A stretch of DNA of 64,000 bases, taken from contig CM060073.1 of the NCBI GenBank assembly GCA_030533445.1, forward strand, positions 40,160,928-40,224,927, given 5' to 3'. Positions 22,363 to 62,228 of this stretch are shown one piece after another. Within the stretch, counting starts at the first letter, position 1. Every line of letters begins with the position of its first letter. This stretch comes from Cyprinodon diabolis (Eukaryota; Chordata; Actinopteri; Cyprinodontiformes; Cyprinodontidae). The position numbers and the translations under genes were made by a program. Under the pieces are notes generated by a model that did no database searches, was not told where the DNA came from, and saw only the letters and a program-made list of their open reading frames with translations.

Positions 22363-22458
<96 letters not shown>
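22363..22458. repeat. TA dinucleotide microsatellite
   Basis: About 96 bp of nearly pure TA repeat with a single C interruption near 22444. It is likely to be length-variable and could extrude cruciforms. Confidence 0.95.
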
Positions 22459-26651: not shown

Positions 26652-26653
26652 TA

Positions 26654-26682
26654 CACTATATTGCCAAAAGTATTTGCTCACC
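26654..26682 (+). repeat. Left terminal inverted repeat of Tc1 copy 1
   Basis: 29 bp, an exact reverse complement of 27873-27901. It begins cactatattgccaaaagtat and directly follows the TA target site. Confidence 0.95.
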
Positions 26683-26787
26683 CATCCAAATTATTGGAAT
26701 CAGGTGTTCCAATCACTTCCATGGCCACAGGTGTATAAATTCAAGCACCTAGGCATGCAGACTGTTTTTACAAACATTTGTGAAAGA

Positions 26788-27819
26788 ATGGGTCGCTCTC
26801 AGGAGCTCAGTGAATTCCAGCGTGGAACTGTGATAGGATGCCACCTGTGCAACAAATCCAGTCGTGAAATTTCCTCGCTCCTAAATATTCCACAGTCAAC
26901 TGTCAGCTGTATTATAAGAAAATGGAAGTGTTTGGGAACGACAGCAACTCAGCCACGAAGTGGTAGGCCACGTAAACTGACGGAGCGGGGTCAGCGGATG
27001 CTGAAGCGCATAGTGCGAAGAGGTCGCCAACTTTCTGCAGAGTCAATCACTACAGACCTCCAAACTTCATGTGGCCTTCAGATTAGCTCAAGAACAGTGC
27101 GCAGAGAGCTTCATGGAATGGGTTTCCATGGTCGAGCAGCTGCATCCAAGCCATACATAACCAAGTGCAATGCAAAGCGTCGGATGCGGTGGTGTAAAGC
27201 ACGCCGCCACTGGACTCTAGAGCAGTGGAGACGCGTTCTCTGGAGTGACGAATCGCGCTTCTCCATCTGGCAATCTGATGGACGGGTCTGGGTTTGGCGG
27301 TTGCCAGGAGAACGGTACTTGTCTGACTGCATTGTGCCAAGTGTAAAGTTTGATGGAGGGGGGATTATGGTGTGGGGTTGTTTTTCAGGAGCTGGGCTTG
27401 GCCCCTTAGTTCCAGTGAAAGGAACTCTGAATGCTTCAGCATACCAAGACATTTTGGACAATTCCATGCTCCCAACTTTGTGGGAACAGTTTGGAGCTGG
27501 CCCCTTCCTCTTCCAACATGACTGTGCACCAGTGCACAAAGCAAGGTCCATAAAGACATGGATGACAGAGTCTGGTGTGGATGAACTTGACTGGCCTGCA
27601 CAGAGTCCTGACCTCAACCCGATAGAACACCTTTGGGATGAATTAGAGCGGAGACTGAGAGCCAGGCCTTCTCGTCCAACATCAGTGTGCGACCTCACAA
27701 ATGCGCTTCTGGAAGAATGGTCAAAAATTCCCATAAACACACTCCTAAACCTTGTGGACAGCCTTCCCAGAAGAGTTGAAGCTGTTCTAGCTGCAAAGGG
27801 TGGACCGACGTCATATTGA
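26788..27819 (+). CDS. Tc1-family transposase (DD34E), intact, copy 1
   Basis: A cut-and-paste transposase of 343 residues that would bind the element's inverted repeats and insert at TA. The start is set at [10 protein letters not shown], the usual fish Tc1 beginning; the frame is open further upstream into the terminal repeat but without an ATG. Residues about 1-110 form the paired-type double helix-turn-helix DNA-binding region, with the GRPR linker at 59-62. The catalytic triad is D154 (in WSDESRF), D245 (in FQHDCAP) and E280 (in NPIEHLW), with 34 residues between the last two. A GGGxMVWG motif lies at 190-197. At 189 this copy has Asp, where copy 2 has the family-typical Gly; this is the only protein difference seen. 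The single-exon gene sits alone in its element. The length is normal for the family and there is no stop or frameshift. Expression is unknown. Confidence 0.95.
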
Positions 27820-27872
27820 ACCCTATGGATTAGGAACGGGATGTCACTTAAGCTCATATGTGAGTCAAGGCA

Positions 27873-27901
27873 GGTGAGCAAATACTTTTGGCAATATAGT
27901 G
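27873..27901 (-). repeat. Right terminal inverted repeat of Tc1 copy 1
   Basis: 29 bp, an exact reverse complement of the left end, followed by the TA duplication at 27902-27903. Confidence 0.95.
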
Positions 27902-27903
27902 TA

Positions 27904-28869
27904 TCTAGAAGTTTTTTTAATGATTTGTACATCCCTCCATTGAGAAAACTGAAATCAAACATTATTACTGCAGCATTTGGCATTTAGGTTAAGATGTTTT
28001 GTTGACAAATCACTCCACCAAACACTAAATCCCTATAAGTTTTGTATCCAGAGGATCAAATGTTTTTTAAGGCAGGACGTAGACATGCACTGCTGGGCTC
28101 CCTGTTGTATAATATACCATGAGGGAATGTCACATCCTGCACAGAATAATGCAAAACAAGTATTTATTTTTTATTTTTTATTATCCACCTGTGTATTTAC
28201 TTGCTTTCCCTCCTTTTTTTCTGTACATTATTTTTTATTAATAACAATGTGTAGCAGGGTGGTCATGGAGCAAAGCATTGAGAGAAGGTTAAAGTGTATG
28301 ATACCTTCTACAGAAACAATAAAGAACATAATGCGTAGTTATCTGCTTTGTACTTCATGGAACTGCCCTTTATGCTCATAGATTTTCAAATAATGTTGGT
28401 CTGGAATCAATGGGACACGGTCAGATCAGGGAATGCAAGTCCTTTGGAAGAACACATCAATTAGATAATATTGGGGAATGGATTTTTCCCCCAACCTCAA
28501 CCCTGCCCTCCCCTCACTCCCATGTACCCTTCACCTTTGCTTTTTCCTTCAGTGCTTACTGCAATTATTTCATAGTCAGCGATGGAGATGGAGAAATGGC
28601 AAGGTCCATTTGTGTTTATGTGCATGTTGACTTAAAGGAACTCTGAATGTTGTAATTTATATGGTTTCGGATAGTGTGTGTGCCCAGGTGTGCACCCCGT
28701 TCAACATTCAGATGGATCACAACAATGGAAATCTCCTAGAAACTTCTGTTGTCGCATTCCATACGAGTGCAGGCATGTAGAAATGGACACACACGTGCAC
28801 ATACCCTGCATTTGTTTTATCCCCTCTGGAATCTGGAGGAAGGTGTCAGGTCCATGTCTGGTCTATCTC
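27904..28869. other. Non-coding stretch, no recognised gene
   Basis: No gene recognised. The open frame of 134 codons at 27977-28381 is AT-rich and has no domain-like pattern. Confidence 0.45.
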
Positions 28870-29170
28870 TGGCTTTGCACACAAGCTTCCCTCTCCTCCT
28901 GTCTCCCACCCCCTTCTCTTCCTCCTCCAGGCCTCACCATAATCTCTCTTCTTCCTCATCCTCCCTGTTTTCTGCACCCCCCTTCCTCATCTCCTCTTGG
29001 CTTCCCTCTATCTCCTCTCATGCTCATTTCTCTCACTTTCTCCCCCAGACCTCTCTGTCTTCCCTCACCTCCCTCATGTTTTTCCATCTCTTCATTCTCT
29101 CCTGTCCTTCTTCAGGTCTCTGTCTTCTCTCTCTGCTGCTAATTTTCCCAGCCTTGTTTTGCTCTCAGCT
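28870..29170 (+). repeat. Long pyrimidine-rich tract
   Basis: About 300 bp made almost entirely of C and T on the + strand, with repeated ctcctcc, cttcctc and tctctct units. Such a biased strand gives long artificial open frames rich in Ser, Pro and Leu in all three + frames, which I do not count as genes. Mirror-symmetric polypyrimidine DNA of this type can form triplex (H-DNA) structures. Confidence 0.75.
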
Positions 29171-32100
29171 CTCTTCAGTCTGAAATAAATTACACACAAA
29201 CTCAATGTACATCTCTTTGTTCTCCCTGCTGGTTAATTCAATTCATTTTAGCCAGGCTCTGCATTCTGAATGATAAATGCATTGACGATGCAATTAAACA
29301 GGGTCGTGCATTAAAGCGCTGGTAGTAAGCTCCCAGTACATGTCATGCACATGATGCCTAGGACAAATATTCAGATGTAGCTGCAGAGAGACCACATGGA
29401 AGATCAATTAACATGTTTTCAAATGTTTTTTTTTTATGCTTGTGGACAACAGCAACCCCAATATAGGCAGTATTTGTTCTTTGGCATCCAATATGGTTAA
29501 TTATTTGACATCACTAAACTCACTTTATCCAGCATAAAGCTTTAGATATTCAGACAAATATACTTAAAAATATTTAGAAGATTCTGGCCATAGACTAATA
29601 AGAATTTTAGGTGGCTAAATCTGGTTTTGGCTTACAAAATGTTTAAGAGTAACCTTCTAAAAGAAAACTGTGTTTTCAACTGTGCTTTTACCCAGAGATT
29701 TGGATACAAGTCCAGTTTTTGGAGTGGATCAGGCCAGTGTGAACCTGGACCATCCTGGACAAGATAAGTGAACCCTGGTATGGTAACAACCATAGAACAG
29801 TGTGAATGTAAGGCTCCTACCAGCATAAGGTGACTAGATGTTTCGGTTTGTGTGGGAATGTGCCTTATTTTTCGATTAGGTCCCTGTGTCACATAAATTG
29901 AAAATATATCCCACTTTTGGCTGGGTTAAACTCTGAAACATAAAAAACAGCTTAATAGCTGCTTTTCTTGAGTGTAAAGAAAGCAGAGCTGCAGTCATTG
30001 AAACAGGTGTTGCACAGCTGTTAATCAAAATACAAATGCTGTCCTCCACATCATGACCAACCCGCAGATAATGCTGTTAAAAAAATTAGAACAGGTAAAG
30101 AATTTGCACAAAATGTAATAGAAACTACATATGAAGAAAAGAAAGCACAGCTACAACAAAGACTGGGGATTGAGATCAATAAAAATCAGAGATTGTTGTG
30201 AAAGTTATTTTTCGGTTTCATATTAATATAATATAAATATTATGTCCAATTTCAGAAAAGAGTGAAATAAATTAATTGTATTATTTATTTCTAGGTCAAG
30301 GCTCTATATGTTTATCCCTTGACTGTTTAGTAGTGACTGGTTCCTTAGGTTTATGCCAGTATAACGCACAGTAGCTGAAGTATGTTTTAGGTTATTCAAT
30401 GTAAATAATTGATACTTATAGGTAAGTAGAATTTAAAAATATTGCTGATTAAATACATTTTAGGACAGGTTTGAATTAACCAATTTGTTAAAACTGTTAT
30501 CAGATAATATATCAGAAATATATATAACAAACCTATATCAAATGTATGATCTGTTACCTGTCCTGGTTGATTTCTTACAGTTTTATCATTAAAGTGATGC
30601 AACTAGTGAAGTATTGTTTCCCAGACTTAAAAATCAAGACTCAGCATGAATGAATGCTGTATAAGCAGAAAATTGTGTGTCTTCCACAGACAGATTGTGA
30701 ACTGTCTGTATACCTTTTAGGTTTGGAGAGAGATGTTTTATTGAAGGTGACCCAACAGTCCCTGGAGAACCAGGTGACTTCTTTCTTGTGTCTTCAATCG
30801 TCTGCTCTAGCGTTTGGCTTCCTGTGGTGTGATTAATGTTTTCTCAACAGCATCCTTTCTGCATACCTTCAACTTTACATGTCAAAACATGAGGGCAGCG
30901 TCAATCAGCTACCAAATCTTCCTGGTTGTGACCACCGGTACAGAGCTTGGATTTCATTATCTGTTGTCACTTGAGATTACATTTGTGTATACATCAGTGT
31001 TAGGTGTAAAGCCTTCGTTTTAGATCACACCTAGTAGAGTTATATCAAAATTTCCAAGTTGCCCTTGTTGTTGTTAGTATTAGTTTGTCATTTTTTTGTC
31101 ATGAGTCTCCATATTTTCAAAGCTCCAGATACTTTAAAATATTTAACAGCCAACTTCTTTTGCCTCCCTCCTTCACATGTTCAGGTCTTATCACCCCAAA
31201 AAAATGGGAATCTTAAACCATATTGGATTTAAAGGCCGAGATCCAGATGAAAATAGAAAACAAAATCCAGTGACATGTGAGGAATACTGTAGTTTGGTGA
31301 GTCCTCATTTCCTCTCTTTACAGGAAAGGAAAGATTTACATTGACACCTGTGTCACACAATGTCCCGAAGAAGAGCACCCAGTTTAAATGCTGTGGGATT
31401 GTGGGAAGGCAGAGGGTGATTAATGGGGCGTGTGTAAACAAAGCCCTTGAAACAAAAGCGAGAGTGTAAAGAATAGAGATAAGGCTCGACTCCAGTCAAG
31501 TTTGGCATCATCCCTCTTCCACTAACGACCTCTACTGTCGTCCAGTGATGGTGGGGGCAGTGAGGAGACCTCAGAATAGAAAGAAAGAGGCTGAAAGAGG
31601 ACCTGACATGCACATTCATTCTTTAAATGAAAAGAGATAATTGTGAGAGGAACTGACCTGTCTTCATTCTTTGAATAAATAAAAACGCATGACCTGCCTG
31701 AAATATGGACAATGCCATTACTGATTTAATTTGAATAGACTACTTGTTATTGTGTCTCGCTCTGCCCGCCTTGAATGCTAAAATGGCTGGCATGACTTAA
31801 AAACAGCAATGGAAAAATTAAACGCAGTCTCCATTGTTAAAAAAAAAATATTTACAATTAATATGCTTTTAAAAGAAGTGTCAGGGTCTCTGCTGCATGA
31901 CGTAAAGTAATGAAATCTTTTTAAAGATTTATCGTTTATCAAATATTGCCACCCCTGCTGATCATGCATTATGATGACTGGGATCATAAAATGAACCACT
32001 CTAAAGATGAGTTGCACCAGTCTTACCATCTTTTCAGTTCTTTATCGTGGTCAAGAGCAGTAAAACATGTTTACTAAGCATTATAAATCTCACCAACAAG

Positions 32101-32881
32101 CTCAGACTCTTAACAGCCGGCATTTTCATTTTCACTTTTCAATATAATGCTCTCATAGAGGTCTTAATTTAGTATATTTGACAAAAGCTGACCAATTAAA
32201 CGTATTGATTTCTTACCATGATGTAAGCATGCAATAATCAACATAGACTTGTTCTCTTTCGATTTTATGAAATACAGCCTGTCAACCTGTAGCACAGCCC
32301 TATGTTTACCTAATGATATACTGGAAGAGAAGGCGTCTGTGTCCTCCCATCCAAATACTTTAGATAAGCCGAGTTAGCCTCCCCACTGCTCCATCCTGCA
32401 ATGCTATCAGCGGGGCAGGCTGGCCCATTCCAAAGAACATCTTTCACCACATAGTGAGGACCCTAAATCATTTAAAACACATTGCTCAGCTCTTAACGAC
32501 CTAAATAGTGAGCTCATGAGGATAAATAAACACGGAATAGAGATGAAATGTTTTGGCTTTTGATTTTAAAATAAAGTTTTCTTGCCAATTTGTAAATTTC
32601 TCCTCTGTGAGAAGCAGCCATCTTGACATAAACAGTCACACTGAGGTTTATTCTAAAAGAACCTTTATTGGATTCAGTTCTCATTTTTACACTTTTCCAG
32701 ATATTGTCTTTTTGTACTCAGTCTAAAGCCTGCTTTAAAAACCAGTAATTCAAAGTTATTTTCTCTCTTTTTAAGCTTCCATAAGTTAACCTGTTAATGA
32801 TGGAAATAATAAATACAAGTTGGACATGTAGGTTCCCATTGCGCGCTTTATTTAACAGTCCTGATAATTGCTTATATATCA
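29171..32881. other. Non-coding stretch, no recognised gene
   Basis: No supported gene in 3.7 kb. Blocks at about 29225-29335 and 32290-32430 have higher sequence complexity than their surroundings and could be conserved non-coding elements (see findings). The rest is AT-rich. Confidence 0.45.
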
Positions 32882-33400
32882 AAAGGCAAGGCGATTTATC
32901 TAGCTCATTTTTGCAACAAGACAATTCAAAGTGCTGCAAATGACTCAAACAATACATTAAAACAGAGAGAAACATACATTGCAGGAGCCGCATTTAAAAA
33001 AACAACAAATGACTAAGTATTACAGCTAATATAGTGACTGGTGCCATCCAGTGATCTAAAGACTAGAAGTATTTGAAAGTTGATTCTCTGAGATACAGCA
33101 AGGTAGTGTTAACACTTTAGAACCACTTTCTTAGTTTTAGTGAGGATGCAGGCAGCAGCATTCTGCATCAACTGCAGCTATCTTATCCGCTTTTTAGACA
33201 AAACTGAAGAAGCCTTTGCAGTTGTCAATTATACTTCTACATATTCATATTCTACATATGAAAGCATGAATAATTTTTTCAAGATCTTACTGCAACATTT
33301 GTCCTTTCATTCCCTTGAGGTGATAAAAGGCCAACCGTGCTACTGTCTTTTTGTTCCTTGAAGGTTCAGTTCCCGTCTTAACTGAAACTCTGAGCTGACT
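32882..33400 (-). mobile_element. LINE 3' fragment (L2-like), minus strand
   Basis: The plus-strand start aaaggcaaggcgatttatct, followed by agctcatttttgcaacaaga and caattcaaagtgct, is the reverse complement of the widespread fish LINE 3' end whose tail runs ctatataaataaa then cttgcc repeats. Sequence to about 33400 (gcagcagcattctgcatcaa, then aggtgataaaaggc) belongs to the same repeat. It is heavily diverged, without an ORF. Confidence 0.5.
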
Positions 33401-33544
33401 TTTGAATATTGACATCGGTTTTGATTTTATTCAGTAGAAGAAAAGTTTAGCATCCGTTCACTTATTTCGACTTTGCATTTGGTTCTTAGTCACCTGATGA
33501 CATTGTGATATATCAGAGTGTAACGTCTGCATAGTTAACTTTTA

Positions 33545-33731
33545 AATGATCTCACATTGGAGAAATTTCCCTCTGTATTTAACCCATCCCTTTGGAGAGC
33601 AGTGGGCTGCCATCGTGGGGCGCAGGGGGGAGCAGTGTGAGTTTAAGGGTCTTGCTCAGAGACCCAGAGCTGAAACTCAGAACCTCAGGACTCCAAGCTC
33701 ATTGCCCTAACCACTCGGCCACCACTCCCGG
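33545..33731 (-). repeat. tRNA-derived SINE, minus strand
   Basis: On the minus strand the 5' part contains an A-box tggccgagtgg (33721-33711) and a B-box-like ggttctgagtt (33684-33674). These are the internal RNA polymerase III promoter elements, resembling a tRNA-Leu/Ser head. The body continues with gcagcccactgctctccaaa and gggatgggttaaatacagag. The body is shared with copies at 51421-51590 and 62101-62228, which run on the + strand and seem to lack the tRNA head. Confidence 0.65.
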
Positions 33732-33989
33732 TACAGTAAAATGTTATTCATCTGAAAAGGGCAGTTCATTTCTGTGGTTAGCTTCATTCATTTCAAGGAA
33801 AAATAAATTGTATGAATAATGATATTCACTCCATCAACATTAGTATTGATATATACGTATAAGCAGCACAATGTACAAAATTAGCTCAACGTTTCTGTGC
33901 AGCACTGAATATAAAAGGATATTCTGTGCCAATTACAATTTTTTGTACTTAGCTGAAAGCTGTGAATAACAGGGTCAGAATAAATCTTT

Positions 33990-34245
33990 GCAGATACAAA
34001 AGAATCATACCACTCTTTTTGACTCATCCAAGTGCAATCTAGGGCAAATTCATTTTTTGCTACAGAGGGTAATCATGGTTACACTCAGTAGGTACCATGG
34101 AAGTGGCAGTATCATGTTAAGGGAATGCTTTATTTCAGTAGGGACGGGTAAAACTGTGAAAAATGATGGAAATCATCGGATTGATCTAAATTGGCTCATA
34201 GACTTGTCTTCCAAATTTAATGCATTCCTGAGTGAAAATAAATAG
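33990..34245 (+). mobile_element. Tc1-like transposase gene fragment
   Basis: Around 34091-34125 the sequence reads taccatggaagtggcagtat and then catgttaagggaatgc, a decayed form of the GGSIMxWG coding motif of Tc1 transposases. The downstream gatctaaattggctcataga also resembles that family. Frames are broken and no termini were found. Confidence 0.45.
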
Positions 34246-36950
34246 TGCATTCAGATGCACAATTTAGGTTAAGTTTGTTTTGGTCAGTAAAATACACTTT
34301 ACGTCACAATACATCATATTTGAAGTGTCTTTCAAATATCATGATTAGGTTTGTATATATTTAGCTGGATATATATTGAGTGTAGAGGGTCTGTCTGGCC
34401 AAAACCAGCTCAATCTGTCCACTATACAGTGCTTCCCTGTCTCCTAGCAACTCCCTGAACGCCTGAGGTCGGCTGTTACCTTTCTGTCAGGACCGGGGAT
34501 TTCTCCCGGCTGGAGTGAGGTGACTTTCATGTGTGATGTGTGTTTCAGAGACTTCCACCCCCTCCCCTCCTCCTCATCCTCCCCCTCCCCTCCTCTCTTC
34601 TCCACTGCTGCTATGGGGGTATAACACGCAAGGAGCGGCCCTGCTGTCGAAAAGCATTGGTTCAGATTCCTGTTTGCTCTACCCCCGACGGCAATGGCTC
34701 TTTGAAAGAGGGAGGACTTGAAAGGATGGCATCGCAGTGAGTGATCACTGGATGTGCTGTAACAAGAGAAAACTCTGAGGGCGCCGTAGGAGGAGGAGAC
34801 AAGAAAATGAGAACGTGTGGCAGCGTGGAGGGAAAAAATAAAAATAGTACCAAAGAGATGTTTTATTGGAAGAAGGGAGAGCAGCAGATTAATGAAATAG
34901 GAAGACATTAGTCACCGACTTGTCTGTTAATATTCCCACAGAAATAGGTTTGGAGCTGTACTTGTTTGAAGCAACACAGGGATTTTAACACACTTTACTG
35001 AAAGACTGGTGCAGGATTGTCAGAGAACTCCGTGGCAATGGACATTTTCAACACTTCATTCACACTAAAGAGCCACTTCAATAATTCATCACTCATTCTC
35101 TGAACAGTGCCTCTCCACAGCTGGCTAATAGTTTTCAACACTCTTTAAACTCTTTCACAAACACACTCAAACTCTTCTTTCCCCCACCCTGTTTTACAAA
35201 CCTCACACATCATATTTTTTCAGTGAGACAGAGATGGGACAAAACATTGGAACAGAGATGCCAAGGTAATTTTTTTAACACAAATCTGACGCACATTTTA
35301 ATATTCTTCAGCGACACTGATTTGCCGGAATCTGATAGCGGACCATTGTGACCCTATTATGACCCCTTATGTGACTACTCAGCATTTCAGTGCTTGCAGA
35401 CTTAAAGGAGAGCCTTGGAGGAATTTCTGGGCCACACTGCTCTCCACAGTTTGTGATGGTGAGGTCATTGGTGGTTTTCTTGTGAGAGCGTTTTTATGTG
35501 GGTGTGTGGGCTAATATATCTTTGTGTGGTATTTTTCATTGTGCCAGGGGGATATGGGTTTGGAAAGGCTAATTTGGGTTTTAGGGTACTGGGCCCTTGC
35601 CAGATACGCTAAACACGTGTGCCATTTGTTATAGGACAGCCGCAACCTAAATGCACACATGCACAAACATGCAACAACCCCAACCCTGTTCATGCACCTG
35701 GATCTTGGCTGAGAATAGTCATTTTTTCAGCCGTGACTTCATCTATGACAAACTGTGCAGCGAAACCAGTCCTTGCTTGACTGATGTCAATCTCCTAACC
35801 ATATAGTTTACTTACCATATTATATTATATCCATTAATGTATCAAATGGCACATTTAAACATAAAGATTGAGCTTTTCCATATTAATGACATTTAAAGCA
35901 AATACCTTATTAAGATTTTATGGTGCAGATCAGCACAAGTAGGACGTGTGAGTTGGGTGGATAATGATCATGGGCTATAAATAAGAATATGGCGTCAGGA
36001 TTACGACAAAGTTGAACCACGAGTTAATATTATGCTCCTCGGGTGCATTGGGGTCACCTTTTTTTTATTAACCGCAAGCTCATATAATGCTAAACAAGCA
36101 AATTTTGTAGTACATGAATGCAGTCAAGGTCCCACGCTTGAGACGTGCTCTGAGACTCACCAAAATGGACTACTTTTTCAGTGCTTTTAGGGCTTTTCCA
36201 AAATTTGAAGGTCTTCCCAGGTCAATTCAAAGGTTTTGCATAGAGAACAATTAAGCAGCATTCCATAATGTTAGATTTTGTCATAATCATGTCAATGCAA
36301 AGTTATTTAATCGCTATAAGTCAATAACATTTTGAACCTCTACATTAACTTGGTATCTGAAGGTCAATTATACTTCATAGAGATAATCTGATCAGCAACT
36401 GTCTGGTTTTGAAACATATTTGCATTTCATTTTAGGTCCGGACTTTCATTTTATTAAGTCTGGCTACATTTTAGGGTTGTTGCCTTATTAGACAGTGAAT
36501 TACAGTGATTGACAGCTATGTTCAAATATGATTACAAAGGCCATTTTTTGTCTCATCTAAACCGATAAACTTCCTGCAAATTTTAAGTCCATATGTATTT
36601 TTGATGGCTTGTAGAAAAATGAGAACAGTAGCTTTTTTCTATCACTCATTCATAACGGTTACATTTGTGCACAACTAAATTCTACAACTATCCTAGATGA
36701 AGTCCGTAATTATTTCTGCCAAACACATTCCAGCAATGTGTTCAAGATGTGTTAAAGTGGATTGGGATGTGCAAACTGACAAGACACACTGTCCAAACCA
36801 ATTCTGTCACCTGAGCTGTGGATATTTCCAGCTCCTCCAGAGTTACCATAAGTCACAAAGTTTGAATTCCAGTTAGGCAAATTCTATACACTAACTAAAT
36901 AACTTTTAGTGGCAGTTTGTATCTCTGGATTTTATCCAGCGGTACCATAT
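34246..36950. other. Non-coding stretch, no recognised gene
   Basis: No gene recognised. A pyrimidine-rich patch lies at 34552-34605. A weak splice-bounded segment at 35224-35265 (acceptor ttttttcag, donor gtaatt) is noted under findings. Confidence 0.45.
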
Positions 36951-36959
36951 GTGAAGGGG

Positions 36960-37136
36960 CAAAATAAAAATACATACCAAAGATTCAACTTTATTCTTTT
37001 TTGGAAAAATATATCTGTACTACTTTGAATTGGTCTGTTACATTAAATTCCAAACACAAACATAAAAGTTTGTGACTGCAATGCCACAAAACTTGAAAAT
37101 AATGGAGGCTGTATGAATACTTTTTGACACAATGTA
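36960..37136 (+). mobile_element. Tc1-like element, 3' end remnant
   Basis: The stretch tttgtgactgcaatgccaca, then aaacttgaaaataatggagg and ctgtatgaatactttttgac, ending acacaatgta, is a diverged 3' end of the same Tc1-like family as at 15.5-16.0 kb. No transposase coding is left. Confidence 0.5.
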
Positions 37137-37316
37137 TAAAGACATTTGTTCACTTTATCTTTACGTTCTTCACAATTATGCAGATGGTACAGAAGGTTTT
37201 TATTTTCTTTTTATGGTTTTAATTAGTCTAAAGCCATTTCTTCCCTCTCACTTGCCCCTCCTCCATTGTTGTTGAAACTGTTGCTCCTGATTAGTGTTCA
37301 GTCATAGGCCTTGGAA

Positions 37317-37365
37317 AGGTTGGTGGTGGTGGTGGTAGTAGTGAGTGGTGGTGGTGGGGGGGGTT
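37317..37365 (+). repeat. GGT-rich tract, possible G-quadruplex
   Basis: Runs of ggtggtggtggtagtagtg followed by gtggtggtggggggggtt give many closely spaced G-runs on the + strand. A G-quadruplex is possible. Confidence 0.6.
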
Positions 37366-38291
37366 ACAGAGGCATCAGTGACACAAGTAGTTTGGCTCCA
37401 TTTTCTTCCCCCAGTTTCTCTTTCTTTCCCTTTTACTTAGACCCTGATGTTTCCAACCCTCTCCATCTGCAGTCCGACCTCTGCTATTCTTCACTATGAT
37501 TCCTGTGTGTTCAAAGGCGGCAGGATGTAAGTAATTGGAAGGGATGTGGTGAAGTTGAAGCCCCCCCCTCTTCTATATTGGAAGGCCCCTAGCACTGGAG
37601 AGGTCAGCGAGAGAGAGCCTCACACTGACATGTAGGCCTGGACGGCAGCATCCAGCCACAACATGCCCGAGGCACCTCGATCAGCAGCAGCAGCTCTGTC
37701 CGGACACGAGCATAAAGAGCAGTGAACGGATCTGCAGCTGCTGCAGTCAAGCTTACCCTCAACATGTTTGCTCCTCTGATTCCAGCACAAAGAAACTTAG
37801 CTTCATACGGCTCAGATCCTCGGCTCAGGTTCACTTCTAAGATATTACAATGCCTTAAAGCTAAGAACTAACACTCTGTTCTTATACACTCTTCTGTGCT
37901 AATCTGCATTCTACCTGTTTGCCTTATACACCGTGGGTGCGCCTCTAATCAGCTGTGATCAAATTGCTGGGCTTCAGGGATCGCTCCCACGCGTCTAGCG
38001 GCACAGACATGGCAGGGCAATTAGCACATCTCTTCACACAGGCTTAGACCACAGAAACGTGGAAAAGGGCAGCTTAAGAGGCTACTTTAACCACGACGGC
38101 TTTAAATAAAGATGTCTGGACTGCATCAACATCAGTAAGACCACTACTACCAATGGTCCACATCATACAGTGATTCAGTCATACACATGTGCAATGTATA
38201 CACCCAAACATGCTCTGACAGCCAAGCAGACGCTTAAACACACAAACACTGCTTAGACTACACGTGTGTGTTTATGAGGAAAAAAAAAGTT

Positions 38292-38313
38292 GGTGTGTGT
38301 GTGTGTGTGTGTG
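38292..38313 (+). repeat. GT dinucleotide microsatellite
   Basis: An uninterrupted GT run of about 11 units, the commonest microsatellite type in fish DNA. Confidence 0.9.
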
Positions 38314-39352
38314 AGGGGACATAAATTACACATTACACAAGCACACAGAGTCAGTCTCTGCCTTCAGCATATGTCATCATCAGCAGACCATTTCTTTTGA
38401 GGGGCTGTCCTGGTAAGAGTGCAAGGTTGATTTGGGGAAACACCCAGCTGACACGATAACCCCGCCTTTCTGTGACACTGAGTCGCCTCTGCTCTCCCAG
38501 AACATTACCTGGGGCTTTCCCTGTGCCAGTTGGGATTACCGCTGGAACAAGTTAGCACCACACTACCCACCCACTGTCATGTAAAAAAAAAAACCAACAT
38601 GTATCCACCAATCCAAAGGTCCTGAAATTCTACGAAGACATGGAAAAGATGATGCCTCCTAATGTTATCATCATGCAAACCCCATGGGGATATGTCTGCC
38701 TGTCATGCCCTGGGGTGTGCCATGGTTGGCAACCTTTCCAGAGGGGGCAGGGCGTCCTGCTGGGCTCGCAGGGCTGCTCCTATCTATTGGGAGGGCCCCT
38801 CCCACTTCCTAGAATACCACCAAAATTCAGTGACTACTCCTTTCTGTCTGTCTCCTCAAATCTGTTGAGACTGAGGTCATGAATAATACTGGAAAATTAC
38901 TTTTTCAAGCACACAAAGAAATTGTTTTGCTATTACCAAAATGGTACGGTTATAGTGCAGTTAAATATGGTGATTCCTTTTACATCGATTTAGAAATCCT
39001 TGTAAATTTCCAAATACTTTTTTAATGTAAAAAACACAAAATGATCCTGTTTGCTGTGCTTTTCATGTTCTTTGAGTTGGGGATGTTGTCTATTTTGATG
39101 GGTAAAAGATTTTCTATCCTGCTTGCTTACATGTTTAATTCATTTTGGGTAACTAGTGTACCCTACGTATACCCTTAAAAATGGGAAAAACAAGGAAATT
39201 CATGACCAGGAACACAGCTTTTTTGTAAATAAATTTGGGCGAATTTTGGATCACAAGAATATTCATCCAAAAAACAGGTTTACTGTTTACCTCATGGGCT
39301 ATACGTTTTACCTCCTCACAGTCTATATCAGCTATGGCTAGATATAGTAACA

Positions 39353-39355
<3 letters not shown>

Positions 39356-39383
<28 letters not shown>
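39356..39383. repeat. TA dinucleotide microsatellite
   Basis: About 28 bp of pure TA repeat. Confidence 0.9.
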
Positions 39384-39389
<6 letters not shown>

Positions 39390-39931
39390 TGGTAATTATT
39401 GTTGACTGATTTCATTTTGTTGGTGAATATAGCCAGAAGTAATCATAATGCAGCAGTTATTCTCTGATAGCATAACAACAAGTTGACATCTGCAACAGAA
39501 TAATGTTGCAATGAAGCAATGTTGCAATGAAAATTAAGGACGTATGTGAGAGCAAACCTTATATCCTCATATTTTAAGCAAAACTGGCAGAAATCATTAA
39601 CTGGAGAGTTTCTTCGGCGGCTTGACATGTTTCACGGACTACAAAATTACAGAAACAGAAATTGTCGTTTGGAGTTTTTGCGTCAGATCTGATTCGTTCC
39701 AACCTGACAAGGGTGACCCTGTTAATCCTGCTTTTAAAATCAAGCCGTACTATCCCTTTATCAGATTGATAAACCGTATCCTATTAGCCTGGCTGGCAAG
39801 GCTAACTACTGTCACCTGTGGTTCCTACTGTTATAGCCACTGATGCTTAAGGTTTGGGTTCTAGATGTCTCCATTTTTTAAAAACTTATAAACAAGTATT
39901 GTGTCAATTACAAACACCAATATGATCAACA
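39384..39931. other. Non-coding stretch, no recognised gene
   Basis: Nothing recognised except a short direct duplication of aatgttgcaatgaa at about 39502-39531. Confidence 0.45.
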
Positions 39932-40024
39932 TATTCTCATTATCAGTTCGTATGAAATCATACGAAAAGTTATGCACATTACTTCGTACGTTTTGGACGT
40001 TTTTCCTCAAAAAACCACATCAGT

Positions 40025-40034
40025 GCGCATGCGC
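40025..40034. promoter_or_regulatory. NRF1-like motif GCGCATGCGC in the MITE, left copy
   Basis: An exact match to the palindromic NRF1 binding consensus GCGCATGCGC. It lies inside the left half of the MITE. Binding is inferred from sequence only. Confidence 0.4.
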
Positions 40035-40202
40035 TGGCAGACAGAAAAAAAGCAGATCCGTGGACGGACGTAAAACTGGGAAAAACAGTGCAATCATCAC
40101 TTATTCATGTCTCTAACTACGTTGCTTGCTGTTTTATATCTTAGGGTCAGGGTTAGGGCTAATTGTAATTTATATTCTATGTTCGTGAATGGTGCGTCAG
40201 AT

Positions 40203-40212
40203 GCGCATGCGC
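40203..40212. promoter_or_regulatory. NRF1-like motif GCGCATGCGC in the MITE, right copy
   Basis: A second exact GCGCATGCGC, extended to TGCGCATGCGCA, in the right half of the same MITE. The two sites are 178 bp apart. Confidence 0.4.
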
Positions 40213-40293
40213 ATACGACGAAAAAAACATCGAAAACGTACGAAATTACGGTGCATAACTTTTCGTACGATTTACGAACTCATAATGAGAATA

Positions 40294-41297
40294 CACTGAT
40301 ATGATTTATGGAAAATCATTCCATGTGTATAGCTCTGCTTTTTCTTGTCCATCTTCTTATACTGTATTTTCTTAATATCTTTGTTATGTATTTTAATTTG
40401 GGAAAAAAAGGTTAAACTACAGTAAAGTAATCCCTTACATTCTGCAGGTCTGTGGAAAGACCAGAGGAGATTGCTTTAGGACTTAAATCTTGATCACAGA
40501 GATGCTTTTCAAACCTTTTAGAAAAATGTAAACTTGTGAGAAGAAAATACTTTCTACAGTTTAAATCTAAATGTTTATTTTAAATGATTGTCTAACCTAG
40601 AAATCGTTTTTCTTACACTGATTAGCAAATCAGAAACAGCAGATTTAGTAGCTTATCATCCACAGTGCAATGCTCTTTAAAGGCCTCCTAAAGGACAAAC
40701 CTTAGCTACTTGGGGATATTTGGATGTTATAGTCCAATTATGTTAATCTGGGCTTGGATAAAATCATAAACCGAGGAAAAAAAACATGGTAAACTACAGC
40801 TTCAATCCTTTGACAGCAGATAGTACATTCAAACCCTTCCCACACGGCAGTCGTCATCAGCTGAACATCTAAACATGCAGTTTACATTTAGAAAAGGGGC
40901 ACATGAGTGGTATCTACACTGTCATCTCTTATCTGCCAGACACTTATGCAATGGTTTAACTACATAATAATCGCTAATAATGCAGCATACTAAAATAGAG
41001 TATGAGAGTATGAGAGACCAGATCCACAAACTACTAAAAATACTTCCTTTACGTCTGTTCTTTTACTAAAAATATTGAATTAACTAAAGAAAATATTTTT
41101 GTCTAATGACAATATATTACTTACAATTCTGAACTTCTCATATTAGAAAAGGTTTAAGAGTTTATCTTTTTTTCTACTCACTTTGCAAACGTGAATGTTT
41201 TGGTTTTCTTTAAGGAAGACTTAATGACATGCTGTATGTCATACTTGCAATAACAATAAAAAGGCGATTGCTTTTAAATTGTTAGCATCACAATATA
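40294..41297. other. Non-coding stretch, no recognised gene
   Basis: AT-rich DNA with nothing recognised. Confidence 0.5.
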
Positions 41298-41299
41298 TA

Positions 41300-41328
41300 C
41301 ACTATATTGCCAAAAGTATTTGCTCACC
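41300..41328 (+). repeat. Terminal inverted repeat of Tc1 copy 2 (transposase 3' side)
   Basis: 29 bp, an exact reverse complement of 42519-42547, preceded by the TA duplication. Confidence 0.95.
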
Positions 41329-41381
41329 TGCCTTGACTCACATATGAGCTTAAGTGACATCCCGTTCCTAATCCATAGGGT

Positions 41382-42413
41382 TCAATATGACGTCGGTCCA
41401 CCCTTTGCAGCTAGAACAGCTTCAACTCTTCTGGGAAGGCTGTCCACAAGGTTTAGGAGTGTGTTTATGGGAATTTTTGACCATTCTTCCAGAAGCGCAT
41501 TTGTGAGGTCGCACACTGATGTTGGACGAGAAGGCCTGGCTCTCAGTCTCCGCTCTAATTCATCCCAAAGGTGTTCTATCGGGTTGAGGTCAGGACTCTG
41601 TGCAGGCCAGTCAAGTTCATCCACACCAGACTCTGTCATCCATGTCTTTATGGACCTTGCTTTGTGCACTGGTGCACAGTCATGTTGGAAGAGGAAGGGG
41701 CCAGCTCCAAACTGTTCCCACAAAGTTGGGAGCATGGAATTGTCCAAAATGTCTTGGTATGCTGAAGCATTCAGAGTTCCTTTCACTGGAACTAAGGGGC
41801 CAAGCCCAGCTCCTGAAAAACAACCCCACACCATAATCCCCCCTCCACCAAACTTTACACTTGGCACAATGCAGTCAGACAAGTACCGTTCTCCTGGCAA
41901 CCGCCAAACCCAGACCCGTCCATCAGATTGCCAGATGGAGAAGCGCGATTCGTCACTCCAGAGAACGCGTCTCCACTGCTCTAGAGTCCAGTGGCGGCGT
42001 GCTTTACACCACCGCATCCGACGCTTTGCATTGCACTTGGTTATGTATGGCTTGGATGCAGCTGCTCGACCATGGAAACCCATTCCATGAAGCTCTCTGC
42101 GCACTGTTCTTGAGCTAATCTGAAGGCCACATGAAGTTTGGAGGTCTGTAGTGATTGACTCTGCAGAAAGTTGGCGACCTCTTCGCACTATGCGCTTCAG
42201 CATCCGCTGACCCCGCTCCGTCAGTTTACGTGGCCTACCACTTCGTGGCTGAGTTGCTGTCGTTCCCAAACACTTCCATTTTCTTATAATACAGCTGACA
42301 GTTGACTGTGGAATATTTAGGAGCGAGGAAATTTCACGACTGGATTTGTTGCACAGGTGGCATCCTATCACAGTTCCACGCTGGAATTCACTGAGCTCCT
42401 GAGAGCGACCCAT
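41382..42413 (-). CDS. Tc1-family transposase (DD34E), intact, copy 2
   Basis: An intact 343-residue transposase on the minus strand, the same protein as copy 1 except Gly at 189, which restores the run of four glycines ([11 protein letters not shown]) usual in this family. The paired-type DNA-binding half (about 1-110, GRPR at 59-62) and the catalytic residues D154, D245 and E280 are all present. The start at 42413 is the MGRSQ methionine; an upstream extension of the frame has no ATG and runs into the terminal repeat. Of the two copies this is the better candidate for an active enzyme, because Asp at 189 in copy 1 departs from the family pattern. Activity is inferred from intactness only. 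Confidence 0.95.
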
Positions 42414-42518
42414 TCTTTCACAAATGTTTGTAAAAACAGTCTGCATGCCTAGGTGCTTGAATTTATACACCTGTGGCCATGGAAGTGATTGGAACACCTG
42501 ATTCCAATAATTTGGATG

Positions 42519-42547
42519 GGTGAGCAAATACTTTTGGCAATATAGTG
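42519..42547 (-). repeat. Terminal inverted repeat of Tc1 copy 2 (transposase 5' side)
   Basis: 29 bp, an exact reverse complement of 41300-41328, followed by TA at 42548-42549. Confidence 0.95.
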
Positions 42548-42549
42548 TA

Positions 42550-51420: not shown

Positions 51421-51590
51421 CCACTCCCACGGACTGACACTCTGGGTCAGACCGTTAACCCTACACTGCTCCCTGGGTGCCACACAGTGGCAGCCCACTG
51501 CTCCCCAAGGGGACGGGTTAAATGCAGAGAATTTATTTCGTTGACCTGTGTTTGTGGCAGTGTAATGACAATAAAAAACATATAATGTAA
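51421..51590 (+). repeat. SINE body copy, + strand
   Basis: Contains gcagcccactgctccccaag, then gggacgggttaaatgcagag, and ends in gtgtaatgacaataaaaaac. The core is shared with 62101-62228 and, inverted, with 33545-33731. The tRNA-like head is not evident, so it is probably 5'-truncated. Confidence 0.65.
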
Positions 51591-59859: not shown

Positions 59860-60618
59860 CAGCTTTCTGCAGATTCATTTATTTTTAATGAACCTGCTGA
59901 TTATCCAAACCAAAGGAATAAAGCAAAAGAAATGTAAACAACCAGTAAAAAACAAATCAGAGCAAATCAAACTCTTGCATATTACTTTTTAAAGAATACA
60001 TAATAACCAGATAAAGGACTAGATTAGAAATCAGAAAAAAATACTGCTGGGGTTTTCTTCACAAACTGAAGGGGAGATAATTTTTTCATTTTATGTGGTA
60101 TTTGTAAATGCTTTAGCTGAATTTGATCTTAAAGAGGGAAGTGGATGTTGTCCGATTTGTTGAGTTTTACAGTCTTGCAGAGCTGGCATTGGTCCCTGTG
60201 GTTTTGTAGTTTCTACACCATCCCTTAGCTTGGCTGACAGTTAGGTCTCAGAAGAAACACCTGTCTGATCTACTTGAGGGTACGGATGGAACACTTTGCA
60301 TTTATTTCTAGGCATTTGGTTTCTAAACGATCCCAGCTTGATGAAACTCCTAGCACGGTGTCAAGAAAATGTTCATATCTAAATGTACATGTAAAGAAGG
60401 TTACAAGAGAGGTTACTGGGAAGGTTGCAAGTACCCCATTCGATCCCCACAGCATCCACTCTGGGTTCCTGAGCAAAACCTTAACTATTTATAGGGCAAG
60501 TGACCCTTTTTTATCACTTGCATACCCCTTAAAAAGGGAGTCCCCCCCATCCCTCGGTGAGGTCTAGAAGCACAAGATCTATATCCAGCCATTCAGCAAA
60601 GATACTGCTACATGGCTG
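59860..60618. other. Non-coding stretch, no recognised gene
   Basis: Nothing recognised. A 97-codon open frame at 60274-60567 has no domain-like features. Confidence 0.45.
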
Positions 60619-60620
60619 TA

Positions 60621-61689
60621 CACTCACCGGCCACTTTATTAGGTACACCTGTCCAACTGCTCGTTAACACTTAATTTCTAAGCAGCCAATCACATGGCGG
60701 AAACTCAGTGTTTTTAGGCATGTAGACATGGTCAAGACAATCTCCTGCAGTTCAAACCGAGCATCATTATGGGGAAGAAAGGTGATTTGAGTGACTTTGA
60801 ACGTGGCATGATTGTTGGTGCCAGAAGGGCTGGTCTGAGTATTTCAGAAACTGCTGATCTACTGGGATTTTCACGCACAACCATCTCTAGGGTTTACAGA
60901 GAATGGTCCGAAAAAAGAAAAAACATCCAGTGAGCGGCAGTTCTGTGGGCGGAAATGCCTTGTTGATGCCAGAGATCAGAGAAGAATGGCCAGACTCATT
61001 GCAGCTGATAGAAGGGCAACAGTGACTCAAATAACCACCCGTTACAACTAAGGTGGGCAGAAGAGCATCTCTGAATGCACAGTACATCGAACTTTGAGGC
61101 AGATGGGCTACAGCAGCAGAAGAATTTGGCGTCTACAACATGAAAGCATGGATCCATCCTGCCTTGTATCAACGGTTCAGGCTGGTGGTGGTGGTGTCAT
61201 GGTGTGGGGAATATTTTCTTGGCACTCTTTGGGCCCCTTGGTACCAATTGAGCATCGTTAAAACGCCATAGCCTACCTGAGTATTGTTGCTGACCATGTC
61301 CATCCCTTTATGACCACAATGTACCCAACTTCTGATGGCTACTTTCAGCAGGATAATGCGCCATGTCATAAAGCTGGAATCATCTCAGACTGGTTTCTTG
61401 AACATGACAATGAGTTCACTGTACTCAAATGGCCTCCACAGTCACCAGATCTCAATCCAATAGAGCATCTTTGGGATGTGGTGGAATGGGAGATTTGCAT
61501 CATGGATTTGCAGCCGACAAATCTGCGGTGACTGTGTGATGCCATCATGTCAATATGGACCAAACTCCCTGAGGAATGCTTCCAGCACCTTGTTGAATCT
61601 ATGCCACGAAGAATTGAGGCAGTTCTGAAGGCAAAAGGGGGTCCAACCCGTTACTAGCATGGGGTACCTAATAAAGTGGCCGGTGAGTG
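60621..61689 (+). mobile_element. Broken Tc1/mariner-type element with DD36E-type transposase
   Basis: A 1,069-bp element flanked by TA (60619-60620 and 61690-61691), with 26-bp perfect inverted ends beginning cactcaccggccactttatt. Its terminal sequence is unrelated to that of the two intact Tc1 copies. It carries a transposase pseudogene with an internal deletion. The ends are intact, so it could still be mobilised by a matching transposase made elsewhere. Confidence 0.93.
60769..61657 (+). pseudogene. Transposase pseudogene, DD36E type, first catalytic Asp deleted
   Basis: The gene starts at an ATG (MGKKGDLSDF) with a recognisable paired-type N-terminal half. It then hits a frameshift in an A-run that leads to TGA at 60931-60933, and later a TAA at 61049-61051. 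Near 61118-61128 the sequence jumps from the end of the DNA-binding half (QMGYSSRR) straight to IWRLQHESMD. Compared with the intact Tc1 transposases here, roughly 50 residues carrying the first catalytic Asp are missing. Further frame changes follow. The last part stays open at 61310-61531, with the second Asp in QQDNAPCH and the Glu in NPIEHLW separated by 36 residues. That spacing defines the DD36E (Incomer-type) group rather than DD34E Tc1. The final frame ends KGGPTRY. It is inactive. Confidence 0.9.
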
Positions 61690-61691
61690 TA

Positions 61692-62100
61692 CATCCTGTT
61701 TTGGCATTTGACCAATTAGATGAGCCCTTGAATGATATATTACCTACTGTAAATTAAGCAGGAAAAAAAAAGTTAAGTCTAGGTAAAAAAAGTTAAAAAG
61801 TAAAGTTAAAAAGTTAATAGGCCTAGTTAACAATTATATTTAGGTTTATAAACTGAAAAATGTAATTGCCAGTATCAGTATTAATGCCTCGAAGGTTATG
61901 TTGTACTAAAAAAGTGTTTCTTTCACTCTCAAAATGTTTTTCATTAATTTCTTATAGATGAACTTTGGTTATTTCTCTTAATCTATTCTGGCAAATTGGC
62001 ATTTTTAGTTATTACATTGAAATTCATTTTGGCCATCAAAATATCCATATTCCAATAACACTATTGGTTTGAAATTTGGATTTTCAAAGTATTTCACGTA
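61692..62100. other. Non-coding AT-rich stretch
   Basis: Contains a tandem-like gttaaaaagt patch at about 61770-61830 and otherwise nothing recognised. Confidence 0.5.
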
Positions 62101-62228
62101 GTGCCCTATAAAGGGGGAACTCCTGATTGCTCCCCTGGCGCCACACAATGGCAGCCCACTGCTCCCCAAGGGGATGGGTCAAAATGCAGAGAATGAATTT
62201 CCCATTGTGGGACAATATAGATATTTAA
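62101..62228 (+). repeat. SINE body copy, + strand
   Basis: Contains ggcgccacacaatggcagcc, then cactgctccccaaggggatg, and ends in gaatttcccattgtgggaca before an AT-rich tail. It is the best-preserved match to the 51.4 kb copy and lacks an obvious tRNA head. Confidence 0.65.

What the first reader, a model, noticed from the sequence alone, without database searches (positions are those of the whole stretch)
26654..42547. Two near-identical intact Tc1 transposons in inverted orientation 13.4 kb apart
Both copies are 1,248 bp with perfect 29-bp ends, TA duplications and intact 343-residue DD34E transposases. Only one base difference was found by reading. Intact copies this similar suggest very recent or ongoing transposition, unusual for vertebrate Tc1 families, which are mostly dead. 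The inverted pair also brackets about 13.4 kb that could invert by recombination.
Basis: partly seen in the sequence, partly recalled or inferred. Interest (0 to 1): 0.75.

Follow-up and report, generated by a model that had tools for sequence, protein, structure and literature searches.

The report
Two copies from huge fresh transposon burst
Two almost identical jumping genes in what looks like a fish genome turn out to be ordinary neighbours within a very young burst of about five thousand nearly identical copies, so the pair is unremarkable but the burst is not.

Summary
In detail: L (26654-27901, +) and R (41300-42547, -) are 1,248-bp Tc1/DD34E elements with perfect 29-bp ends, TA duplications and open 343-aa frames, one base apart (G189D in L), with unrelated flanks.
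The window's own genome (1.22 Gb) changes the meaning. A 33-base diagnostic word occurs exactly 5,122 times: 4,715 with R's base, 407 with L's; 5,352 within 3 mismatches. Thirty copies read (26 as listed, 4 in two tandem loci) are all 1,248 bp with open frames and 0-2 changes from L or R. At one copy per 238 kb about 315 pairs this close are expected, so the pair is ordinary.
The burst is not: about 0.5% of the genome if copies are full length, about 0.05% private divergence in the majority form. L belongs to a younger-looking sublineage changed at a near-invariant glycine (G in 112 of 120 relatives); 8 of 18 listed copies read also have P274A. Either these transposases work, or the copies are moved in trans by the majority. 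New member of a known kind; ongoing activity and horizontal arrival are inferred, not shown.

The parts
26654..27901 (+). L copy: complete 1,248-bp Tc1/DD34E element of the D189 sublineage
   Evidence: identical over 1,248 bp to all 40 scored copies (422 candidates)
26652..26653 (.). TA target duplication, 5' side of L
27902..27903 (.). TA target duplication, 3' side of L
26654..26682 (+). 29-bp terminal inverted repeat, 5' end of L
27873..27901 (-). 29-bp terminal inverted repeat, 3' end of L
26788..27819 (+). L transposase, 343 aa, D154/D245/E280, with G189D
   Evidence: HTH_SB, HTH_Tnp_Tc3_2 and DDE_3 above Pfam cut-off
27353..27353 (+). the only base that differs between the copies (GAT D189 in L, GGT G189 in R)
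   Evidence: 407 versus 4,715 genome-wide exact 33-mers
41300..42547 (-). R copy: complete 1,248-bp element of the majority (G189) form
   Evidence: of 8 G copies read, 3 are identical to it and 5 differ by one base
41298..41299 (.). TA target duplication of R (low-coordinate side)
42548..42549 (.). TA target duplication of R (high-coordinate side)
41300..41328 (+). 29-bp terminal inverted repeat, 3' end of R
42519..42547 (-). 29-bp terminal inverted repeat, 5' end of R
41382..42413 (-). R transposase, 343 aa, G189
   Evidence: model mean pLDDT 85.8, best fold match the Sleeping Beauty catalytic domain 5cr4
27904..41297 (.). host DNA between the two insertions; no protein-coding gene recognised by the scans made

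Best explanation
The two elements are independent insertions belonging to one very young amplification of a short-TIR Tc1/DD34E transposon, with about 5,000 copies in this (by inference fish) genome. Each copy read encodes a Tc1-type transposase. By the known mechanism of the superfamily, it binds the 29-bp ends, cuts the element out and reinserts it at a TA, here preferring A-N-A-TA-T-N-T. The copies lie 13.4 kb apart and inverted because copies are dense (one per 238 kb), not because of a special arrangement. R carries the majority base. L belongs to a younger-looking sublineage (407 exact words) with G189D, part of which also has P274A. Shown: anatomy, word counts, near-zero divergence and open frames in the copies read, target preference, chance-level spacing. 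Inferred: full length of the copies not read, cut-and-paste mechanism, continuing activity, recent horizontal arrival, and that the G189 majority supplied transposase for at least part of the D189 spread.
For: Anatomy. Copy number: 407 exact D words, 4,715 exact G words, 5,352 of both with up to 3 mismatches; backward-read controls 0 in each. Divergence: 40 of 40 scored copies 100% identical to L over 1,248 bp (422 candidates, best 40 scored, so biased to likeness); 22 D copies at 0-2 changes from L; 8 of 8 G copies, the first listed on C1, at 0-1 changes from R. All 30 of these last copies have no indel and an open 343-aa frame. TA on both sides in 30 of 30 loci. Target preference over 55 of 56 single-insertion loci: A at -3 in 50, A at -1 in 46, T at +2 in 45, T at +4 in 47. 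Spacing: 6 gaps of at most 14,646 bp observed versus 7.5 expected among 107 copies on the first 21.2 Mb of C1.
Against: No transcript, excision footprint, empty allele or second individual was available, so current mobility is unproven. Divergence rests on 30 copies read plus one 33-base word; copies that lost the word were not sampled, and 230 of 5,352 have 1-3 mismatches in it. The word would miss copies more than about 9% diverged, so an older layer is not excluded. Near-identity could be inflated if the assembly filled repeats with one consensus, although sublineage markers and private changes argue against that. The two tandem loci do not show the standard TA at every junction.
Confidence: 0.93

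Rival explanations
1. The D189 (and D189/A274) transposases are functional, perhaps better than the ancestor, and drive their own younger sub-burst in cis.
For: The D sublineage has 407 exact copies of the word and looks more uniform than the G majority: 2 private changes in 27,456 bp (tandem copies included) versus 5 in 9,984 bp, two-sided p 0.017. The neighbouring residue of Sleeping Beauty gives hyperactive mutants (H187F/Y, passages of PMC4820933), and this family naturally has F there (F in 83 of 120 relatives). One of the 120 relatives (P0075, a fragment) also has D at 189.
Against: Residue 189 is G in 112 of 120 relatives and corresponds to the first of the three pivot glycines of the clamp loop (G188 in Sleeping Beauty by the offset of the triad). 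Residue 274 is P in 101 of 120 with 14 gaps. Changes at such sites usually impair an enzyme. The sample is small, and the five G changes could include unrecognised sublineage markers.
Confidence: 0.35
2. D189 copies are full-length passengers: their transposase is impaired, but their intact ends are moved in trans by the G189 copies, and they spread by drift from one source.
For: The 29-bp ends are unchanged in all 30 copies read, so trans-mobilisation is expected. Transposase of this superfamily can act in trans (established knowledge, recalled). 4,715 G words are present as possible sources. Both changes hit near-invariant residues.
Against: No functional test. A younger and more uniform D group also fits a gain of function.
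Confidence: 0.5
3. L and R are related by a local hop, one having produced the other.
For: Close linkage; local hopping is known for Sleeping Beauty (about 80% within 3 Mb in frog remobilisation; abstract and passages of PMC3271037).
Against: They carry different forms at codon 189, each with many copies elsewhere. Short gaps are not in excess: 6 observed versus 7.5 expected.
Confidence: 0.04
4. The near-identity is an assembly or gene-conversion effect.
For: Identical repeats are hard to assemble and can be filled with a consensus; gene conversion between copies is possible.
Against: Flanks of the window copies and of the 30 loci, compared with each other, share only six partial repeats (154-325 bp, 89-94%); no N in the window or in those 30 loci; a consistent D/G and 954C/G structure and private changes. 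Flanks of the other 28 loci were not compared by BLAST.
Confidence: 0.04

Closest known systems
Tc1-like transposase cluster represented by Cyprinodon variegatus (UniRef record, P0003, 74 member sequences)
   Same: 341 of 343 residues identical to R, same domains
   Different: Residues 57 and 73 differ and the record starts 11 residues earlier; only the protein was seen, no DNA, ends or copy number
Short-ITR Tc1 subclass of fish with CACT ends (DTSsa2 and DTSsa7 of Atlantic salmon, PMC2198921, section 5 read)
   Same: TA target, CACT end, short ITR (about 40 and about 20 bp in that paper, 29 here)
   Different: DTSsa2 is listed at about 1,600 bp, here 1,248; sequences were not compared. The paper reports that recovered copies often have internal deletions or insertions or are fragments
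Sleeping Beauty and other long-TIR fish Tc1 elements
   Same: DD34E catalytic domain and helix-turn-helix domains; 5cr4 is the best match by sequence and by fold
   Different: TIRs of about 230 bp with two binding sites (PMC4820933, passages); here 29 bp and no inner copy found
Traveler (DD35E), recent invader of fish and frogs (PMC7093834, passages read)
   Same: Recent burst with intact copies; more than 8,000 copies, of which more than 2,000 intact, reported in Rhi. marina
   Different: Family named for spacing 35, here 34; 1-142 intact copies reported in ray-finned fish, here 30 of 30 copies read out of 5,122 word matches

Membership tests
Tc1/mariner superfamily, Tc1/DD34E family | DDE triad with 34 residues between the second D and E | tested here: met
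   D154, D245, E280, spacing 34
Tc1/mariner superfamily, Tc1/DD34E family | TA target duplication | tested here: met
   Both window copies; 30 of 30 loci; the two tandem loci differ
Tc1/mariner superfamily, Tc1/DD34E family | N-terminal helix-turn-helix domains and C-terminal DDE domain | tested here: met
   HTH_SB, HTH_Tnp_Tc3_2 and DDE_3 above cut-off; fold match to 5cr4 and Mos1
Tc1/mariner superfamily, Tc1/DD34E family | Catalysed transposition | not testable with these tools
   Needs an excision or integration assay
Sleeping Beauty / ZB type (IR/DR) | TIRs of about 200-230 bp with inner and outer direct repeats | tested here: not met
   29-bp perfect TIRs; a 16-base core of the TIR, up to 3 mismatches, matches inside the elements only at their ends
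Traveler (DD35E) | 35-residue spacing | tested here: not met
   Spacing 34
Short-ITR, CACT-end fish Tc1 subclass (DTSsa2/7) | Short ITR with CACT end | tested here: met
   29 bp, CACT; table of PMC2198921
Short-ITR, CACT-end fish Tc1 subclass (DTSsa2/7) | DNA sequence similarity to DTSsa2 or DTSsa7 | not tested
   Their sequences were not at hand

The most novel reading that the evidence does not exclude
Inside a burst of about 5,000 near-identical copies, a younger sublineage spreads although its transposase is changed at one or two near-invariant residues. Either full-length copies with crippled enzymes are already spreading as passengers, which would be an opening step of how a transposon family dies, or these residues tolerate change and even raise activity. 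The window holds one member of each type 13.4 kb apart.
Probability: 0.4. Interest if true: 0.68.

Novelty: new member of a known kind. Interest (0 to 1): 0.52.

Why it matters
Vertebrate Tc1 families are often seen long after their burst. Here about 5,000 copies are caught at about 0.05% private divergence (in the copies read) with frames still open and sublineages inside. That makes it possible to test whether defective copies already hitchhike while the family is still spreading. It is also a candidate for a living fish transposon, and a dense set of possibly polymorphic insertions for population work. The pair itself matters little.

Tried and rejected
1. My own early reading that L is simply a dead copy because of G189D was dropped after the genome search: 407 words carry that codon and 40 of 40 scored copies equal L.

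2. Local hop and special inverted pair were rejected on density.

3. Host gene context: a coding-potential scan, a splice-aware exon scan and a Pfam scan of 10 open frames gave no recognisable host gene; Rfam at gathering thresholds gave 0 matches. It is a teleost by inference only (closest proteins, genome size, contigs numbered up to 24).

4. Relatives in public contigs: viral contigs by protein and by TIR, and genome contigs by protein, found none (the tool warns that records near the window's genome may be left out). Two TIR strings were found in none of the held papers.

5. Horizontal transfer: in a 23-row tree of chosen rows, three Leptobrachium frog fragments fall unresolved among cyprinid, Sphaeramia and Cyprinodon copies at 87-90% identity to R. 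This suggests transfer, but database contamination is not excluded and the fork is open (86/85).

6. A bacterial promoter scan is irrelevant here. The count of the P274A word and of the tandem junction were asked and never answered; a search for empty sites on alternative contigs was not asked.
Full report
OBSERVATION. The window holds two complete Tc1-type elements: L at 26654-27901 (+) and R at 41300-42547 (-), each 1,248 bp, with 29-bp perfect ends and TA on both sides. They differ at one base of 1,248. The change is non-synonymous: codon 189 is GAT (D) in L and GGT (G) in R. Their 1,500-bp flanks share only chance-level short matches (best E 0.007), so they are two insertions, not a duplicated segment. 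A TATAAA lies at element position 81 and the frame starts at 135; no AATAAA or ATTAAA is present in the element.

PROTEIN. The 343-aa frame matches HTH_SB, HTH_Tnp_Tc3_2 and DDE_3 above the Pfam cut-offs. The triad is D154, D245, E280 with spacing 34. The closest solved chain by sequence is the Sleeping Beauty catalytic domain 5cr4, E 3.5e-50, which is also the best fold match of a model of R with mean pLDDT 85.8 and pTM 0.61. In the model residues 186-190 have pLDDT below 50, in keeping with a flexible strip. Position 189 is G in 112 of 120 listed relatives, with 3 gaps and 5 others, one of them D (P0075, a fragment). By the offset of the triad (SB D153/D244/E279) it corresponds to SB G188, the first of three glycines on which the clamp loop pivots (passages of PMC7827188 and PMC4820933).

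WHOLE GENOME. The window lies in G000:C12:40160928-40224927 of a genome of 1,219,523,432 bases in 936 contigs. A search with L scored 40 of 422 candidates, and all 40 were 100% identical to L over 1,248 bp; these are the best, so they are biased to likeness. A 33-base word round codon 189 occurs exactly 407 times in the D form (207+200) and 4,715 times in the G form (2,384+2,331). Both forms with up to 3 mismatches occur 5,352 times (2,716+2,636). The backward-read control gave 0 in each. So 5,122 of 5,352 (95.7%) are exact over 33 bases, corresponding to a mean of about 0.13% per base for this word. If all 5,352 are full length they make 6.7 Mb, about 0.55% of the genome (0.52% for the 5,122 exact ones); full length was checked only for the copies read.

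COPIES READ. D form: 20 loci (all 12 sites on C5, the first 6 of 16 listed on C6, and 2 tandem loci chosen for their 1,248-bp spacing) hold 22 copies. Ten equal L, and twelve carry C954G (P274A), of which two have one further private change each (C372T, G481A); among the 18 single-insertion copies 8 carry C954G. G form: the first 8 sites listed on C1. Three equal R and five differ by one private base each. All 30 copies are 1,248 bp without indels and keep the 343-aa frame; none of the changes lies in the 29-bp ends. A further 30 copies, the top rows, contain L letter for letter. Private divergence is 5 in 9,984 bp (95% interval 0.016-0.117%) for G and 2 in 27,456 bp (0.0009-0.026%) for D; the D group looks younger (two-sided p 0.017, tandem copies included), but the five G changes could include unrecognised sublineage markers. 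With assumed rates of 2.5e-9 to 1e-8 per site (per year or generation, not measured for this host) point estimates are about 50,000-200,000 for G and 7,000-29,000 for D. These are rough, and the intervals are wide.

INSERTION SITES. 55 of 56 single-insertion loci passed an exact filter on the ends; the dropped one was not identified by the script, but L084 has a base change at position 31 inside the filter word. All 55 have TA on the 5' side, with A at -3 in 50, A at -1 in 46, T at +2 in 45 and T at +4 in 47. Thirty of the 56 were the top-scoring identical copies; the other 26 were not chosen for likeness beyond the 33-base word.

IS THE PAIR SPECIAL? At one exact copy per 238 kb, a copy has an 11.6% chance of a neighbour within 14.6 kb, and about 315 such pairs are expected genome-wide. 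On the first 21.2 Mb of C1, 107 copies give 6 gaps that short against 7.5 expected. The pair therefore needs no special cause. Two inverted elements could in principle act like a 'sandwich' transposon, a Sleeping Beauty design (with disabled inner ends) that carries more than 10 kb (passages of PMC4229213), or recombine to invert the interval; neither was testable.

CONTEXT. The same genome has other young Tc1 families: ten copies with 229-bp TIRs at 99.1-99.6% identity to one of them, and ten with 28-bp TIRs at 97.7-98.4%; these were picked from the highest-scoring open frames, so they are not a random sample. The first look for PF01498 had 21,653 candidates, of which 150 were scored. A third, decayed Tc1 with stops and frameshifts lies in the window itself at about 60614-61696, a direct contrast with L and R.

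ORIGIN. The closest protein outside is from Cyprinodon variegatus, 341 of 343 identical to R. In a tree of 23 chosen rows, fish of several orders and a frog (Leptobrachium) fall in an unresolved star. Together with the small number of copies at 1-3 mismatches (230 of 5,352) this suggests recent horizontal arrival (inferred). Against it: the word search cannot see copies more than about 9% diverged, the frog rows are fragments, and contamination is not excluded.

MECHANISM. Most likely ordinary cut-and-paste by a Tc1 transposase, with copy gain through replication-linked hops and gap repair (established for the superfamily, recalled). The D189 and D189/A274 sublineages spread either because their enzymes work or because G189 copies move them in trans. 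I put the second slightly ahead, since both changes hit near-invariant residues, but the evidence does not decide it.

PRINT. Short-ITR, CACT-end Tc1 families of fish are described (PMC2198921, section 5 read and passages). Recent invasions with many intact copies are described for Traveler (PMC7093834, passages), and Tc1 transfers between fish and lampreys in PMC3516227 (first of four parts read). PMC4683633 was seen in passages and PMC9777934 in outline with abstract. Ten literature searches were made; the one for two strings of the element's end found no paper.

Noticed in passing
L077 (C2:23068500-23073500) and L078 (C3:20290800-20295800): Two loci hold two elements head to tail with the ends joined directly (AGTG|CACT), no TA between. 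In L078 the host flanks read TATC on both sides, so either a 4-base duplication or TA plus two filler bases. All four copies are of the D189/A274 type. An assembly artefact is not excluded.
   Followed up: partly
window 60614-61696: A third Tc1 element of another family (about 34% protein identity to R over residues 51-343), with 36-bp ends 94% alike, stops and frameshifts: an old decayed copy.
   Followed up: partly
L009-L018 and L019-L028: Two further young Tc1 families in the same genome: about 1,654 bp with 229-bp perfect TIRs, and about 1,650 bp with 28-bp TIRs.
   Followed up: partly
window 39932-40293: MITE-like palindromic element with arms of about 72 bp, 85% complementary, carrying a GGGTTAGGG stretch.
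   Followed up: no
window 33550-33661, 51440-51539, 62128-62212: Three copies of a dispersed SINE-like repeat (79-88% alike).
   Followed up: no
window 22363-22458: (AT)48 microsatellite, 97% matches.
   Followed up: no
P0013, P0017, P0051: Transposase fragments from the frog Leptobrachium leishanense at 87-90% identity to the protein of R: a possible fish-frog transfer of this family.
   Followed up: partly
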